DNA of 64,000 nt from IMG/VR virus record IMGVR_UViG_3300024999_000097, positions 1-64,000 of that record; one strand, given 5' to 3'. The stretch is from a virus. Each line of letters opens with the position of its first letter. Within the stretch, counting starts at the first letter, position 1. The position numbers and the translations under genes are program-made. The notes beneath the pieces were generated by a model. That model was not told the DNA's origin. It worked only from the letters and a program-made list of their open reading frames with translations, and made no database searches. This document shows, piece by piece, positions 4,256 to 62,046 of this stretch.

Positions 4256-4492
4256 ATGCTTAAAAACATATTAAATAAATTAAAGCTAATAGGTAAACAA
4301 AAAGCAGTAATAGTTAAAAGTTGCGATAATTGTGCTAATAGAAGTTCCTTTGTTGATAATGGAGTAACGGTTACTTCAAAGGAAGTAACAAATACAAGAT
4401 TAAGCGAAAGAAGGTTATGTAAAGTTTATTCACCTTTAGATGCTTATGAATGCCAAAGGAACAAATATAAACATTGGAAGGGTGTTAGTTAA
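4256..4492 (+). CDS. Cys-containing hypothetical protein, 78 aa
   Basis: Basic N-terminal helix (MLKNILNKLKLIGKQKA), then CDNC at residues 23-26 and further cysteines near residues 60 and 70, so a small metal-binding fold is possible. Its layout (CDNCANRS...RLCKVYSP...ECQRNKYKHW) looks like small phage zinc-finger proteins, but I cannot name a family. The stop overlaps the next ATG (TAATG). Confidence 0.5.
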   Translation: MLKNILNKLKLIGKQKAVIVKSCDNCANRSSFVDNGVTVTSKEVTNTRLSERRLCKVYSPLDAYECQRNKYKHWKGVS

Positions 4493-4860
4493 TGGATAAC
4501 ATTAAAGCTAATTGCAATAGTGACATTATAGAACAGTTTGCTAATAAGAAGTTTAATGAAGGTATAGTAGCTGAAAGGCAAAGGATATTACAACTAGTAA
4601 TGAAGTCGGGAATATGTAACTTATCTATTGAAGGTCCTTGTCTTGATGTTGATTGCAATAAGTGCTGGATAGATTATTTAAGTAATGGAGCAACTATTAC
4701 CCCTCCTAATTCAGTTAGCACTAATCAATTAGTAAATGAATTGCAGTTAAGGGAAGGTGTAAAAGTTATAGTAGTAAAGGCTAATGAGCTTTATAAAATA
4801 GTAGGTCCAGCTAAATTTCTAATGTTAACCCCAGGTAAAGAAATAGTATTTACTGATTAA
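4492..4860 (+). CDS. Hypothetical protein, 122 aa
   Basis: N-terminal half is helical and contains CNLSIEGPCLDVDCNKCWIDYL, four closely spaced cysteines that could bind zinc. The C-terminal half is beta-rich (REGVKVIVVKANELYKIV). No family recognised. Coupled to the upstream gene by overlapping stop and start codons; another small gene follows after a GGAGG site. Confidence 0.5.
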   Translation: MDNIKANCNSDIIEQFANKKFNEGIVAERQRILQLVMKSGICNLSIEGPCLDVDCNKCWIDYLSNGATITPPNSVSTNQLVNELQLREGVKVIVVKANELYKIVGPAKFLMLTPGKEIVFTD

Positions 4861-4873
4861 GGAGGTGATAACA

Positions 4874-5029
4874 ATGGAAACTAAAGCAATAATTGAATTA
4901 ATAGATGAAGCTATAAGTCTAAACCTTGAAGCTATTAAATCGGTAAGTAAGAACATTGATAATGCTACTGTTGAAGCTATTAAGATATTAACAGATAATA
5001 CTATAGCATTAGCTAAACTATTTGAATAG
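4874..5029 (+). CDS. Small helical protein, 51 aa
   Basis: GGAGG ends 9 nt before the ATG. The whole protein reads as an amphipathic helix (METKAIIELIDEAISLNLEA and onward), with hydrophobic residues every three to four positions, so it is probably a coiled coil or helical hairpin. Function unknown. A terminator hairpin follows at once. Confidence 0.55.
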   Translation: METKAIIELIDEAISLNLEAIKSVSKNIDNATVEAIKILTDNTIALAKLFE

Positions 5030-5049
5030 CCAGCCTTAGTGCTGGTTTT
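5030..5049 (+). terminator. Rho-independent terminator
   Basis: CCAGC (5030-5034) and GCTGG (5041-5045) form the stem and a TTTTATTTATTT tail follows. It closes the run of small genes that starts upstream. Confidence 0.75.
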
Positions 5050-5083
5050 ATTTATTTATAACCCTTACTACAATATACTTCAA

Positions 5084-5135
5084 GTTAACTAGGATGGCCA
5101 CAGTTGAACTTAATATTAAAGTCCATAATAACTTA
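5084..5135. repeat. Intergenic repeat, degenerate copy
   Basis: GTTAACTAGGATGGCC (5084-5099) matches the conserved end of the repeats at 820, 53155 and 57853. The opposite end is only weakly recognisable (CCATAATAACTTAC, ending about 5135). It lies between a terminator and a promoter. Confidence 0.5.
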
Positions 5136-5176
5136 CATATATTTGTAGTATTGCTTTATATTTGTACAAAAAACTG

Positions 5177-5204
5177 TTTACATTTATAGCAGATATGATA
5201 TAAT
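5177..5204 (+). promoter_or_regulatory. Sigma-A-type promoter
   Basis: TTTACA (5177-5182), 16 nt, then TATAAT (5199-5204) with an extended TG (ATGATATAAT). The leader contains TAGTTCTTAAG (5221-5231) before the ribosome site, a string shared by several promoters in this window. Confidence 0.85.
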
Positions 5205-5246
5205 AGTACTTGTAAGTAAATAGTTCTTAAGAGGAGGAATATACAT

Positions 5247-5420
5247 ATGCAAAAGGAATATAGCTTAAAAATTAAAAAAGGTGGTAAATGGCAAAGTAGT
5301 AAAAATGAATATACCTTAGAAGAAGCTAATGCAAGAATAGAAGCTTTAACCAAAGTTGGTATCAAAGCTAAGATTGTAGCTGCTAGTGTAAATCGTATGG
5401 ACCTTTATGGTATTAAGTAG
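5247..5420 (+). CDS. Hypothetical protein, 57 aa
   Basis: First gene after a strong promoter; GAGGAGG precedes the ATG. The protein begins with a beta-type, lysine-rich segment (YSLKIKKGGKWQSSKNEY) followed by a helix (TLEEANARIEALTKVG), then a second strand. This short beta-alpha-beta pattern resembles small phage proteins annotated only as hypothetical. No catalytic motif. Confidence 0.6.
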   Translation: MQKEYSLKIKKGGKWQSSKNEYTLEEANARIEALTKVGIKAKIVAASVNRMDLYGIK

Positions 5421-45859: not shown

Positions 45860-46406
45860 AACTTGTATCTTTGATGTTGATGGTGTATTGAATTACTATC
45901 CAGAATCTTACGTAGATTTTATAAATGATGAATTAAAAACATCTTATGCTGACCTTCATGAAGCTAAAGAAAATATCCCTTATAAAATCTACAAACAGTT
46001 AAAATTAAAGTATCGTGTTTGTGGTGTAAAGCAACAATTACCGGTAAGACTAGATGCTGTAGAAATTTTAGCTGATTTAAGAAAACAAGGGTTTTACATT
46101 ATAATACTTTCATCAAGACCAGTTCATGAAATAAATTCTTTGATAATGCAGACTTCAAGATGGTTGCATAGTAATAATCTATTTTATGACTATCTTCTGT
46201 TTAATAAAGAAAAACACCTTGAAGTTATTAAAAACTTTGATAATGTTACTTTTATTGTAGAAGATAATAGAGCTTATGCTAATTCTATTGCTAAGTATGG
46301 TGGCTATAAAGTTTATCTTCTAAATAATCAATACAATCAAGGTGAAGTTTGCCCTAAGGTAACAAGAATTAATAGACTAAGAGAAATAGAGGAGTGTTAT
46401 ATTTAA
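45849..46406 (+). CDS. HAD-family phosphatase (5'-deoxynucleotidase-like)
   Basis: 185 aa, ATG 45849 after GAGAGG. HAD motif I DVDGVLNYY (residues about 8-16), motif II S in IIILSSRPVHE, and motif III/IV in VTFIVEDNRAYAN are seen. The layout is that of deoxyribonucleotidases (NT5C type), which remove 5'-phosphate from dNMP. In this cassette it could remove canonical dUMP/dTMP or a modified intermediate. Stop overlaps next ATG. Confidence 0.8.
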   Translation: MEFKTCIFDVDGVLNYYPESYVDFINDELKTSYADLHEAKENIPYKIYKQLKLKYRVCGVKQQLPVRLDAVEILADLRKQGFYIIILSSRPVHEINSLIMQTSRWLHSNNLFYDYLLFNKEKHLEVIKNFDNVTFIVEDNRAYANSIAKYGGYKVYLLNNQYNQGEVCPKVTRINRLREIEECYI

Positions 46407-47377
46407 TGCCAGTAAATAATAACTTAAAACCAACTACTTTCCCAATGCAAATTAAGTTTGATGAAATACCGGTAACTGAGTTTCATAATAACCTTGAAAA
46501 TATTGATGTTAAAATAGAATATGCTCCTACAATGGATGACCTTCGCAACTTTGTGCCTAACTTTGCTTTAGCAACTTGGGCTGATAAGCCTGAAATTCAA
46601 GATTTAACAGAAATTGAAAAAGATAAAGCTATCTACATGGTTTTTAGGGAAAAGCTTCTTCCTTCAACTCTTGAAACAATTAGACCTACTTTCCTTTTAA
46701 AAGGTATTTCATATCAGGATGTTACTCATATCCTTCGTTATCGCGGAGCTACTTTCTCAGCTGAATGTTCCGGTGATAAATGGTGGACCGATAAAGATGT
46801 AGTTGTCCCAACTAGTATTCAAAATAGTCCTGAATTTTATACACGGTATAAGGAGCTTTCAAAACAAATTAAGCAACTTTATTGTGATATGCTTGACTCA
46901 CGCGAGATAAGTTTACTTGACGCCAGGTTCATTTTGCATAGAGGAATGGAAACTTATTATCATATGTCAATTAGCCTACGTGAAGCTTTGCATTTCATCA
47001 AACATAGGATTGATAAGCAAATTCAACCTGATTCTGATAATGTAATAGCTTATCGGATGTGGGAAGCTTTAATTGACCGATATCCGCTTCTTGTAGACAT
47101 AATTGACATTCATCAACCGGCAATGTTTTATGTAAAAACTGCAAGAACTGGTAGATGTACAAACCTTTTTGTTCCTGATGCTGATACTGATATTTATGAA
47201 TGGAATGAAGAAGATTATTTATATGGTAGGACTCGTGACAAAGTTAATGGTACGGATAAAAAGTTAGCTGAATCCTACTATCCGTTTGGTGAAATATTAA
47301 AAAATTTGGATGCTAAGATAGCAAGAATCAAAAAGGAAAACATTGCCAAGTATGGTGAAGACTTCTTTAAAATTTAG
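46406..47377 (+). CDS. Divergent ThyX-family flavoprotein
   Basis: 323 aa. The second half follows ThyX: VTHILRYRGATFSAECSGDK stands where canonical ThyX has VRHRxxSxxxxSxRY, and LDARFILHRGMETYYHMSIS then LREALHFIKHRIDKQIQPDS corresponds to the conserved helix region with dUMP/FAD contacts (LREALHFxxxR). The first catalytic motif is not conserved, while a canonical ThyX sits at 60816. So this copy likely uses another nucleotide or adds another group, for example a hydroxymethylase. ATG 46406 (TAATG overlap) follows GGAG. It is the last gene before polymerase. Confidence 0.8.
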   Translation: MPVNNNLKPTTFPMQIKFDEIPVTEFHNNLENIDVKIEYAPTMDDLRNFVPNFALATWADKPEIQDLTEIEKDKAIYMVFREKLLPSTLETIRPTFLLKGISYQDVTHILRYRGATFSAECSGDKWWTDKDVVVPTSIQNSPEFYTRYKELSKQIKQLYCDMLDSREISLLDARFILHRGMETYYHMSISLREALHFIKHRIDKQIQPDSDNVIAYRMWEALIDRYPLLVDIIDIHQPAMFYVKTARTGRCTNLFVPDADTDIYEWNEEDYLYGRTRDKVNGTDKKLAESYYPFGEILKNLDAKIARIKKENIAKYGEDFFKI

Positions 47378-47394
47378 TTAGAAGGTGTTGCGTT

Positions 47395-50079
47395 ATCGAC
47401 TTACATCGCCATGATGAATATAGTAATTTTGATGGATATGGTAAAGCAACTACCTTAGCTAAAATAGCCAAAGAAAAAGGCTATGAAGCTTTAGGTATTG
47501 CTAACCATGGTAATAGTAATGGATTAGTTGAACATTACTTTGCTTGTAAAGAAAATGGTATAAAACCAGTAATGGGTGTTGAGGTTTATTTTCAACCGGT
47601 ATTTAATAAAGATAAACCAACATACCATTTATGCTTATTTATTAAAAATCTTAAAGGTTATGAAAACCTTAATAGGATAATAACAATAGCTAATTCAGAT
47701 TATTTTTACTATAAACCTATAGTTACTTTTGAATTGCTTGAAGATTATAATGAGGGTATAATTTGTTCTTCTGCTTGTGTTGGTGGTTTAATTCCCCAAC
47801 TTATAGCTAACAATAAAAAAGAACTTGCTATAAAAGCAACTAAAAAGTTTGTAAATATTTACGGTAAAGACTTCTACTTTGAAATACAACCTTATAAACT
47901 TTTTGATTCACCTGGGCTTCAAGAAAAAGTAAATATAGGTTTGATAAAGTTAAGTGAAAAGTACGACGTCCCTTGTGTATTAACTTCTGATTCACATTAT
48001 GGTAATAAAGAAGACTTCCCCAGTTATCTCAAGATGCATGAAATAGCAGGTAGAACTGGGGAAGCTCTTGATAAAATAAAGCTAACCTATAGTGAAAGAT
48101 ACATGCCAGAGTTAACTGAGATGCCCTCTAGGTTTAAACAAATGCACCCAACCTATAAACATATGGTAAAAGAATTTAAGTTCAATATAGAGGGTCTGGT
48201 GAACTCTATAGATGATGATATACTTGAACTTTTACCCTTACAGATACCTAAGTTTATTGAGGGTGTTGATAGTGGTAAGTTATTAAAGGATGAACTTGTT
48301 AAAGGTTTAAAAGCTAAAGGCAAATATAATAAAAAGTATCTCGCCCAAGTTAAAGAAGAATATGATGTTATTTTACATCATGGTTTTGAAGATTATTTCT
48401 TAATAGTACAAGACTATGTAAAGTGGGCTAAAGATAATGATATTGCTGTAGGTCCTGGTAGAGGCTCTGTCTGCAATAGTATAGTAGCTTATGCATTGGA
48501 TATTACCAATGTTGATCCTATATATTTTAACTTAGATTTTAAAAGGTTTTTGCGGAAAGATAAGAAAAAACTGCCAGATATTGATCTAGATTTTGAAACA
48601 GCTAGAAGACCAGAAGTAATAAAGTACATAATAGATAAGTATCCAGGAAGGGCTGTTCAAATCTGTTCATATGGTCTTTATAAAGTTGATAACTTGATAA
48701 ACGATCTTTGTAAAACTTGTAGTATAAAAGATTCTGGTGAAAAAGCTAACTTAAAAACTTTAGTTAACAAACATGTAATAGAAGGTGTGCTTCAATATGA
48801 AGACCTTATAGCTACACCTGAAGCTAGATACTATAATAAAACATATGATAATGTTATAAATCACTTTAGTAACCTATTTAAGCAAGTAAGGTTTATTGGT
48901 ACACATGCTGCTGGTGTAGCTATCGTAGCTGATGATATTATCAAATATACAGCTATACAAAAGCGGAAAGATAACTTTAGTAGTTCATATGACCTTGCAA
49001 ACTTGGAAAAAATTAATGCTATTAAGTTTGATATTTTAGGTTTAAAAACAATGTCCGAAATAAAGGAACTTGAAGTATTAACCGGTGAAATTCTTGACTA
49101 TTCATGGTTTGAAGATAAAGAGTTATTATCTGCTTTTGGTGCAGGTAATACTGTGGGGATATTCCAGTTTGAAAAAGCAGCAGCAAGGAGTATCCTAACA
49201 GAAATGGATGCAGATTGTATGGAAGATGTAATTGCTGCAAGTGCTTTAAATAGACCTGGTCCTTTGTCATTAAAAATGCCTGAACTTTATGCTGAAAATA
49301 AAAAAGATTCGTCCCATATGCAGGATAGTAAATATTGGGAGTATACAAAGGAAACATATGGTACAATAGTTTACCAAGAACAAATCATGGCTATATGTCG
49401 TAATATTGGTGAAATGGAATATGAAGATATAGACAAAGTCATGAAGATGTTAAAGGGTAGTTCTATTGTTGAATCTGTTTTAAAGAAAAGGGAAGCGGAA
49501 GAAAAAGATCTGCGTGATAAATTCAAAAAGGGTGCTAAGAACCATGGCATAAATAGTAAAGAAGCAGATGACCTTTTTGATAAAATGCTTGTATATTCTT
49601 TCAATAAAGGACATGCTACCGGTTATGGTATTATTAGTGTCCAAAATATGCATTACAAAATAAATCATCCTTTAGAGTTCTGGTTCATGAAAATGAAGTA
49701 TGCTCCAACCGAACAAGACTTAGGTAGATTTAGAGCTAATGCTGTACAAAGTGATTGTTTACTAATGCTTCCTCATGTTAACTTTACAGCTAATTTTTCA
49801 ATAGGTAAAATGGAAGGTGAAAAGGTTATCAGGGAAGGTCTATGTAGTATTAAGAACGTAGGTCTTAAGGCAGCTGAGGTTATCGAGAAGGAACGGTTAA
49901 AGAATGGTAGATATAAAACCATTGATGAATTTATAAGTAGGGTTCCTAAGCGTTCAGTAAACTCTAGGGTAATTAATTCTTTAATAGAACATGGTGCTTT
50001 AGAGTTTGACAAAAAGGTTTATATGAAGCGTGTAATAAAATATAATAGTGCTTTATACATGAGGGGGATGGGAAAATAG
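47395..50079 (+). CDS. dnaE: DNA polymerase III alpha subunit (DnaE-type); ATC start
   Basis: About 894 aa. PHP domain begins at once: IDLHRHDEYSNFDGYGK, the usual first residues of DnaE. Catalytic polymerase motifs follow: GPGRGSVCNS, then LPDIDLDFE with the Asp pair, and helix-hairpin-helix NVGLKAAEVIEKERLKNGRY near the C-terminus. In this frame there is a stop at 47368 and no ATG, GTG or TTG before ATG 47572, which would remove the PHP motif. ATC 47395 lies 9 nt after GAAGG (47381-47385), so translation most likely starts there. It lacks the far C-terminal OB and tau-binding parts of cellular DnaE (about 1100 aa or more). Confidence 0.9.
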   Translation: MDLHRHDEYSNFDGYGKATTLAKIAKEKGYEALGIANHGNSNGLVEHYFACKENGIKPVMGVEVYFQPVFNKDKPTYHLCLFIKNLKGYENLNRIITIANSDYFYYKPIVTFELLEDYNEGIICSSACVGGLIPQLIANNKKELAIKATKKFVNIYGKDFYFEIQPYKLFDSPGLQEKVNIGLIKLSEKYDVPCVLTSDSHYGNKEDFPSYLKMHEIAGRTGEALDKIKLTYSERYMPELTEMPSRFKQMHPTYKHMVKEFKFNIEGLVNSIDDDILELLPLQIPKFIEGVDSGKLLKDELVKGLKAKGKYNKKYLAQVKEEYDVILHHGFEDYFLIVQDYVKWAKDNDIAVGPGRGSVCNSIVAYALDITNVDPIYFNLDFKRFLRKDKKKLPDIDLDFETARRPEVIKYIIDKYPGRAVQICSYGLYKVDNLINDLCKTCSIKDSGEKANLKTLVNKHVIEGVLQYEDLIATPEARYYNKTYDNVINHFSNLFKQVRFIGTHAAGVAIVADDIIKYTAIQKRKDNFSSSYDLANLEKINAIKFDILGLKTMSEIKELEVLTGEILDYSWFEDKELLSAFGAGNTVGIFQFEKAAARSILTEMDADCMEDVIAASALNRPGPLSLKMPELYAENKKDSSHMQDSKYWEYTKETYGTIVYQEQIMAICRNIGEMEYEDIDKVMKMLKGSSIVESVLKKREAEEKDLRDKFKKGAKNHGINSKEADDLFDKMLVYSFNKGHATGYGIISVQNMHYKINHPLEFWFMKMKYAPTEQDLGRFRANAVQSDCLLMLPHVNFTANFSIGKMEGEKVIREGLCSIKNVGLKAAEVIEKERLKNGRYKTIDEFISRVPKRSVNSRVINSLIEHGALEFDKKVYMKRVIKYNSALYMRGMGK

Positions 50080-60472: not shown

Positions 60473-60816
60473 TAATAAAAACAATCGGTAAATATGCCGG
60501 TCATAGCATCAAGGCTAACAAGTCTATCGACCTAACTTTAAAGATGGGTTATGATGAACTTCCCAACTATATTAAGTTAATTCAACTGCTTAATGAAAAC
60601 ATCAACATAGTTGTTAAAGTTGGGGATGAAAAGCCTAAAGAACTTGGTATGTATATGATTAAGAGTATTGGTATTGATCATGATGGGGAAGGTACTATTA
60701 AGTTTAATTCTTCCCTTGATTATGTTGAACCTGACAATCTTAATGGTTTAGCTGGTGAGATATTAAAAATTGCCTTTAAGGCTAATGTAGAAGTAGAAAG
60801 TGAGGATGAAGAATAG
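60442..60816 (+). CDS. Hypothetical protein, 124 aa
   Basis: GTG 60442 after AAGGGAGAG. Reads as a mixed alpha/beta protein (VVIKTIGKYAGHSIKANKSI, LPNYIKLIQLLNENINIVVK) with an acidic C-terminus (VEVESEDEE). Not recognised. The stop overlaps the GTG of thyX, so it is cotranslated with it and possibly connected with DNA metabolism. Confidence 0.6.
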   Translation: MAEGNETKKVVIKTIGKYAGHSIKANKSIDLTLKMGYDELPNYIKLIQLLNENINIVVKVGDEKPKELGMYMIKSIGIDHDGEGTIKFNSSLDYVEPDNLNGLAGEILKIAFKANVEVESEDEE

Positions 60817-61478
60817 TGCGTATAATTAATCCATCAGTAGAAATTGAGAAGATTGACCCAGAAAGAATAATTAGGAATCTTGAGAAGTATGGCAGGAAAT
60901 GTTATCTCTCAGAACCAAAGGGTGATCCTAGTAAGTTTGTAGCTGATAAGATTAAACTTGGTCATGAATCAATAATTGAACATGAAAAAGTAACTGTTAT
61001 TATTGTTTGTGACCGTGGTGTAACACATGAAATTGTAAGGCACCGGTTAGCAAGTTACAGCCAAGAAAGTACTCGGTATTGTAATTATGCACAAGAAAAG
61101 TTCGGTAGTGAAATCACAGTAATTAAACCATTCTTTTATTCAGAAGGTTCTGATAAATATGCTGCTTGGAGACGAGGTTGTGCGATGACTGAAATGGCAT
61201 ATTTTATATTACTCGAAGATAATAGCCAACCTCAGGAAGCCCGTTCTGTTTTACCTAATAGTTTAAAAACTGAAATTGTAGTAACTTTTAACATGCGTGA
61301 GTGGAGGCATTTCTTTAAACTTCGTTGTAGTGCTAAAGCGCATCCACAAATGCGGCAAGTAGCTATTCCTTTATTGGCTAAATTCAAAGAACTTATGCCG
61401 GCATTGTTTGGTGATATTGAGTATGATAAAGATTTTCCGGTTGAACATTATGCGAAAGTAGTGATGGAAAATAAATAG
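60816..61478 (+). CDS. thyX: Flavin-dependent thymidylate synthase ThyX
   Basis: 220 aa, GTG start. The full ThyX signature RHRLASYSQESTRY is present (about residues 73-86), with PHESIIEHEKVTVIIVCDRG-like helix region before it and RSVLPNSLKTEIVVTFNMRE plus WRHFFKLRCSAKAHPQMRQV after it. It methylates dUMP to dTMP using folate, NADPH and FAD. It works with dCMP deaminase (51619) and thymidylate kinase (61480). Confidence 0.95.
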   Translation: MRIINPSVEIEKIDPERIIRNLEKYGRKCYLSEPKGDPSKFVADKIKLGHESIIEHEKVTVIIVCDRGVTHEIVRHRLASYSQESTRYCNYAQEKFGSEITVIKPFFYSEGSDKYAAWRRGCAMTEMAYFILLEDNSQPQEARSVLPNSLKTEIVVTFNMREWRHFFKLRCSAKAHPQMRQVAIPLLAKFKELMPALFGDIEYDKDFPVEHYAKVVMENK

Positions 61479-61479
61479 A

Positions 61480-62046
61480 ATTATTTGTATAGAAGGAATT
61501 GATGGTTCAGGGAAATCAAGTGTTATAGAAAAAGTCACTAATGAGCTTGATAAAAGAGAGTTAACAAACAAAGTTATCCATTTTCCAAATGAAGAAGCTT
61601 ACTTCGGTAAAATTATTTATGATCACTTAAATGGAAAACGTGAAATACCAGGTGATATATTTCAAGCATTATACATCATGGATATGTATGATAAACAACA
61701 ACATATTAAGCACAGTACAAAATACTATGATGTTATAATTCTTGATAGGTGGTATTATTCAACATTAGCTTATAGCAAGTTTTATAAAACACAAGAAGTA
61801 ATTGAGAACATAAGCTATTCCTTATTAATGCCGGATATTACATTCCTGCTTGATACACCTTTAAATGTTTTATCAAAAAGGTTTGAAGGTAAGGATAAAG
61901 ATAAGCATGAATCAAATATTGAGCTTTTAAAAATAGTAAAGGATGAATACTTAAATCTTGCTAATGTTCACAATTTTGTTGTTCTTGACTCAACCTTACC
62001 TATTAATGATATAAAAAATGAAATAATGGGGCATTTCAAAGCTTAA
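61480..62046 (+). CDS. tmk: Thymidylate kinase; ATT start
   Basis: 188 aa. IICIEGIDGSGKSSVIEKV is the canonical N-terminus of thymidylate kinases (Walker A GIDGSGKS), then VIILDRWYYSTLAYS (DRY-type motif) and a lid DTPLNVLSKRFEGKDKDKHE. The only in-frame ATG/GTG/TTG is ATG 61678, which would delete the Walker A motif. ATT 61480 (or 61483) lies at the exact family start, overlapping the thyX stop region, so it is the probable start. The Shine-Dalgarno site is weak (ATGGAAA), suggesting coupling with thyX. Confidence 0.9.
   Translation: MICIEGIDGSGKSSVIEKVTNELDKRELTNKVIHFPNEEAYFGKIIYDHLNGKREIPGDIFQALYIMDMYDKQQHIKHSTKYYDVIILDRWYYSTLAYSKFYKTQEVIENISYSLLMPDITFLLDTPLNVLSKRFEGKDKDKHESNIELLKIVKDEYLNLANVHNFVVLDSTLPINDIKNEIMGHFKA

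What the first reader, a model, noticed from the sequence alone, without database searches (positions are those of the whole stretch)
47381..47580. DNA polymerase appears to start at an ATC codon
Seen: the polymerase frame has a stop at 47368 and no ATG, GTG or TTG before 47572, yet residues from 47395 read IDLHRHDEYSNFDGYGK, the standard first residues of the DnaE PHP domain. GAAGG (47381-47385) lies 9 nt before ATC 47395. Knowledge: AUC/AUU/AUA starts are rare in bacteria (infC is the classic case). Inference: this essential gene uses AUC, perhaps to keep its level low.
Basis: partly seen in the sequence, partly recalled or inferred. Interest (0 to 1): 0.85.

Follow-up and report, generated by a model that had tools for sequence, protein, structure and literature searches.

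The report
Phage polymerase gene lacking normal start
A bacterial virus carries a DNA polymerase gene (and a second gene, for thymidylate kinase) with no ordinary start codon where the protein must begin; it most likely starts from a weak codon (ATC or the GTT just before it), a known but rare trick that can lower protein output.

Summary
In detail: the DnaE-type polymerase frame (47371-50079) has no ATG, GTG or TTG before 47572, although family homology begins at its very start and a Shine-Dalgarno sequence (AGAAGGTG, 47380-47387) stands in place. The interpretation needs a correction. GTT is one base from GTG, so the ancestral start codon appears to have changed in its third base. The ATC site is itself an ATG start in 9 relatives. 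All 69 relatives keep a canonical start. Codon strength and spacing (9 versus 6 nt) favour AUC; homology favours GUU. Sequence alone cannot decide. A second gene of the same phage, dTMP kinase (61465-62046), also lacks a canonical start; ATA 61471 is the only fitting codon. Two of 65 genes here, against 0 of about 308 in relatives, and no broken genes, make random sequencing error unlikely to explain both, but an error at the polymerase site alone is not excluded. AUA, AUC and AUU starts are known in bacteria and work well in clostridia.

The parts
47371..50079 (+). open frame of the DnaE-type DNA polymerase III alpha subunit (PHP, palm, finger, HhH), 894-895 aa from ATC or GTT
47380..47387 (+). 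Shine-Dalgarno sequence AGAAGGTG (7 of 8 bases of AGGAGGTG), 6 nt before GTT and 9 nt before ATC
47392..47394 (+). GTT: codon aligned with the start codon of 51 of 69 relatives; one base from GTG
47395..47397 (+).
47375..47377 (+). TAG stop of the upstream ThyX-like gene (46394 or 46406 to 47377), 14 nt before GTT, close enough for translational coupling
47572..47574 (+). first canonical start (ATG, codon 61 counting GTT as 1); no Shine-Dalgarno sequence (score 5.2, spacing 13), and a start here would remove the HRH and NHG motifs of the PHP domain
61465..62046 (+). second gene without a canonical start: dTMP kinase (Thymidylate_kin), first ATG only at 61678, inside the domain
61471..61473 (+). 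ATA: the only near-cognate codon among residues 1-5, where the shortest solved dTMP kinases place their first Met; lies just before the stop TAG (61476-61478) of the upstream thyX gene; weak GTGAT Shine-Dalgarno match at spacing 9

Best explanation
The polymerase gene is intact and translated, but its start codon is non-canonical. The ancestral start lay at 47392 (ATG, TTG or GTG in relatives) and a third-base change, most simply GTG to GTT, removed it. Ribosomes bound at AGAAGGTG, possibly coupled to termination of the thyX-like gene 14 nt upstream, now start with fMet most likely at AUC 47395, giving M-DLHRHDEYS, the same kind of N-terminus as the nine relatives with an ATG at that place; some or all initiation at GUU 47392 (M-IDLHRH) is possible. 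Yield would be below that of an ATG gene and sensitive to IF3. Shown: no canonical start, alignment of the start with relatives, Shine-Dalgarno sequence, intact gene, a second such gene in the genome. Inferred: which codon is used, coupling, lower yield. The confidence given is for a real non-canonical start at GTT or ATC together; about 0.45 of it is for AUC.
For: No ATG/GTG/TTG before 47572. Domain homology begins at the first codons. 69 of 69 relatives start with a canonical codon: 51 at the GTT position, 9 at the ATC position, 9 one to three codons upstream. The window is sister to L014 (TTG start; SH-aLRT 100), then L015 and L018 (ATG), all starting at the GTT position. Shine-Dalgarno spacing is 6 to GTT (8% of strong sites of this genome) and 9 to ATC (15%). 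The gene is not decaying: 2 deviations at 188 columns that are at least 95% conserved, the family median. The same phage has a dTMP kinase gene with ATA as its only fitting start; 2 of 65 genes against 0 of about 308 sense-strand frames in relatives, Fisher p 0.03. One third of its genes use GTG or TTG. AUC, AUU, AUA and CUG gave 5-20% of AUG with one leader and 40-100% with another in two Clostridium species (PMC9680021); AUU and AUA starts in S. aureus gave about 10% (PMC13009471).
Against: No other sequence of this phage could be fetched, so a base-calling or assembly error (for example GTT for GTG) is not excluded. No relative shows a non-canonical start, so the feature has no comparative conservation. 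There is no protein or ribosome-profiling evidence. The clostridial host is inferred only from relatives of about 50% identity (Agathobaculum phages).
Confidence: 0.75

Rival explanations
1. Within the non-canonical start reading: initiation at GUU 47392, the ancestral start position, as in Streptomyces sigR (GTC, GTT), rather than at AUC.
For: 51 of 69 relatives start at exactly this codon and all three nearest ones do; Ile at position 2 is kept as in the nearest relative L014; a GTC start is proven for sigR and GTT inferred in two species (PMC5472188).
Against: GUU is not among the seven strongest start codons of E. coli while AUC is (PMC12350097); spacing 6 is less usual here than 9.
Confidence: 0.27
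2. Sequencing or assembly error (or a minority variant) at 47392-47397; the real phage has GTG or another canonical start.
For: A single base separates GTT from GTG at the conserved start position; all 69 relatives have canonical starts; only one record of this phage is available.
Against: No interrupted genes seen among 65 long frames and an ordinary count of unusual residues, so the error rate looks low; a second gene lacks a start independently, and two random errors both falling on start codons would imply several hundred errors over the window.
Confidence: 0.18
3. The polymerase is made as an extension of the upstream ThyX-like protein by ribosomal frameshifting.
For: The two frames overlap by 7 bases between the polymerase-frame TAA 47368-47370 and the end of the thyX TAG 47375-47377.
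Against: A -1 shift would have to occur within AATTTAG, which has no slippery heptamer in the thyX frame; many relatives have a stop zero to two codons before their polymerase start, so no fusion exists in the family; a Shine-Dalgarno sequence follows the thyX stop.
Confidence: 0.02
4. Translation starts at the canonical ATG 47572, giving a shortened polymerase of 835 aa.
For: It is the first canonical start in frame.
Against: No Shine-Dalgarno sequence; it lies inside the PHP domain and removes the DLHRH and NHG motifs, invariant or nearly so in relatives; those 60 codons remain conserved.
Confidence: 0.03

Closest known systems
infC (IF3) AUU/AUC/AUA starts (E. coli ATT, Streptomyces ATC, S. 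aureus AUA)
   Same: non-canonical near-cognate start codon in an essential gene
   Different: infC is autoregulated by its own product; no such loop is evident for a phage polymerase, and the codon is not conserved among relatives here
Streptomyces sigR GTC (GTT) start (PMC5472188)
   Same: a GTC/GTT codon at the start position behind AGGAGGTG; the phage has GTT behind AGAAGGTG
   Different: sigR is a regulator with proven and conserved use of the codon; here a competing ATC follows directly and relatives have canonical codons
S. aureus ccpN and citZ (AUA) and cvfC1 (AUU) starts (PMC13009471)
   Same: Firmicute genes with weak starts; citZ AUA is lineage-specific, like the present case
   Different: mapped by retapamulin ribosome profiling; ccpN and cvfC1 starts are conserved and carry extended Shine-Dalgarno sequences

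Membership tests
DnaE-type DNA polymerase III alpha (TIGR00594, phrog_405) | PHP, NTPase/palm, finger and HhH domains in order, above the curated cut-off | tested here: met
   TIGR00594 591 bits against a cut-off of 434; four Pfam domains in order; phrog_405 E 4.5e-212
genes with a non-canonical start codon | no ATG/GTG/TTG at the homology-supported N-terminus | tested here: met
genes with a non-canonical start codon | Shine-Dalgarno sequence at usual spacing before the weak codon | tested here: met
   AGAAGGTG, spacing 6 (GTT) or 9 (ATC); genome mode 7-9
genes with a non-canonical start codon | weak codon conserved among relatives (supporting, not required) | tested here: not met
   69 of 69 relatives have ATG, GTG or TTG
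genes with a non-canonical start codon | use shown by N-terminal peptide, ribosome profiling or reporter mutation | not testable with these tools
   no such data for this uncultured phage
infC-like autoregulated weak start | product controls start-codon discrimination | not tested
   the product is a polymerase; no such activity is known (own knowledge)

The most novel reading that the evidence does not exclude
This phage uses weak start codons by selection on at least two DNA-synthesis genes, the polymerase (GTT/ATC) and dTMP kinase (ATA), each directly downstream of a thyX-type gene, so that their output is tied to translation of thyX and to the host's IF3 level.
Probability: 0.1. Interest if true: 0.7.

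Novelty: new member of a known kind. Interest (0 to 1): 0.45.

Why it matters
Gene finders that allow only ATG, GTG and TTG would cut this polymerase by about 60 residues and damage the N-terminal PHP domain, and would cut the dTMP kinase behind its P-loop. If real, it shows that a major phage replication gene tolerates loss of its canonical start, probably because clostridial ribosomes accept AUC and AUA well, and it gives a natural pair of adjacent weak codons (GTT, ATC) for testing start-site choice.

Tried and rejected
Near-identical copies of the phage: a protein scan of viral contigs found only distant relatives (27-30%), a degenerate DNA pattern for IDLHRHDEYSNFD found nothing, and genome contigs gave only relatives of about 27-33%, so there is no independent sequence of this site. 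A search with an alignment profile worked (67 loci). dTMP kinase relatives: none in viral contigs and only one weak, interrupted match in 20 records checked, so its start could be placed only with distant phage and solved-structure homologues. RNA folding around both starts showed no unusual structure (z -0.34, 0.32, 0.57). No tRNA genes in the window, so no phage-borne initiator tRNA. Ten startless frames in relatives were all on the antisense strand and were taken as spurious. The paper that measured all 64 codons in E. coli is not held; its results are used only as quoted in other papers. Literature searches for phage genes with ATC/GTT starts found nothing direct.

Full report
The window is part of a 65,198-base virus record. 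The finding concerns a DnaE-type DNA polymerase III alpha gene. The frame is open from 47371 to 50079 and contains no ATG, GTG or TTG before 47572. The protein read from ATC 47395 carries the PHP, palm/NTPase, finger and HhH domains and passes the TIGR00594 cut-off (591 bits against 434). PHP homology begins at its second residue, so the start must lie at or directly before 47395. A Shine-Dalgarno sequence, AGAAGGTG, stands at 47380-47387. Sites as good at usable spacing occur before 1.1% of internal codons in this genome.

Relatives correct this. In the nearest annotated phages the aligned start is M|LDLHRH and M|FDLHRH, so their Met aligns with GTT 47392-47394, one codon before the ATC. A profile search gave 67 loci. 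Over 69 relatives, 51 start at the GTT position (46 ATG, 3 GTG, 2 TTG), 9 start with ATG at the ATC position, and 9 start one to three codons upstream; none lacks a canonical start. In a tree of 65 sequences the window is sister to L014 (support 100), which starts TTG-ATT-GAT; next come L015 and L018, both ATG at the GTT position. The ancestral start is therefore the GTT position, and GTT differs from GTG by one base. The ATC is the old second codon (Ile), but a place that other relatives use as their start.

Which codon is used cannot be settled from sequence. For AUC: it is one of the seven strongest start codons in E. coli (as quoted in PMC12350097), spacing 9 is nearer the genome's habit than 6 (15% against 8% of strong sites), and AUC/AUU/AUA/CUG starts reached 5-20% of AUG with one leader and, with another, 45-85% and 40-100% in two Clostridium species (PMC9680021). 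A clostridial host is likely only by kinship with Agathobaculum phages at about 50% identity. For GUU: its position, and the precedent of Streptomyces sigR, which uses GTC and in two species GTT behind AGGAGGTG (PMC5472188). Both sites may be used. The products differ by one residue.

Is the sequence right? No second sequence of this phage was found. Indirect evidence favours a real feature. The polymerase deviates at 2 of 188 highly conserved columns, the family median, so the gene is neither decaying nor visibly full of errors. No broken genes were seen among 65 long frames, though I did not compare every gene with relatives. And a second gene of the same genome lacks a canonical start: the dTMP kinase at 61465-62046 (Pfam Thymidylate_kin 106.6 bits; TIGR00041 above its cut-off). 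Its residues 1-5 are TGG AAA ATA AAT AGA, followed by IICIEGIDGSGKSS. Solved dTMP kinases with short N-termini have their first Met at residues 2 to 5 of this frame, which leaves ATA 61471 as the only near-cognate start. Its Shine-Dalgarno match is weak (GTGAT, spacing 9), and it lies just before the stop of the upstream thyX gene, as in coupled gene pairs. Two of 65 genes here against 0 of about 308 sense-strand frames in relatives gives p 0.03. This comparison was made after seeing the two cases, so the p-value is only indicative. If random errors had struck two start codons, hundreds of errors and several broken genes would be expected.

Rivals. A ThyX-polymerase fusion by frameshift has no slippery site and is contradicted by stops directly before the start in many relatives. 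A start at ATG 47572 has no Shine-Dalgarno sequence and would remove conserved PHP motifs. A sequencing error at the polymerase site alone remains possible, a little under 20% in my judgement.

Verdict: a real and correctly spotted startless frame; most likely a non-canonical start, AUC more likely than GUU; a new instance of a known phenomenon. The dTMP kinase case makes it more interesting than a single odd gene. A regulatory purpose is not shown.

Noticed in passing
61465-62046: dTMP kinase gene without ATG/GTG/TTG at its N-terminus; ATA 61471 is the likely start.
   Followed up: yes
46394-47377 and 60816-61478: Two ThyX-family genes in one phage (the first divergent, 32.6 bits against the thyX cut-off of 87.9); each lies directly upstream of one of the two startless genes.
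   Followed up: partly
L003 (Dulem virus 36, PP511521.1) 4262-5412: The polymerase gene of Dulem virus 36 is interrupted: two polymerase pieces are separated by about 1.1 kb holding an 800-base gene, which suggests an intron or an inserted mobile gene.
   Followed up: no
window, whole: About a third of the genes appear to start with GTG or TTG (17 and 14 of 96), more than in phage SPP1 (10%).
   Followed up: partly
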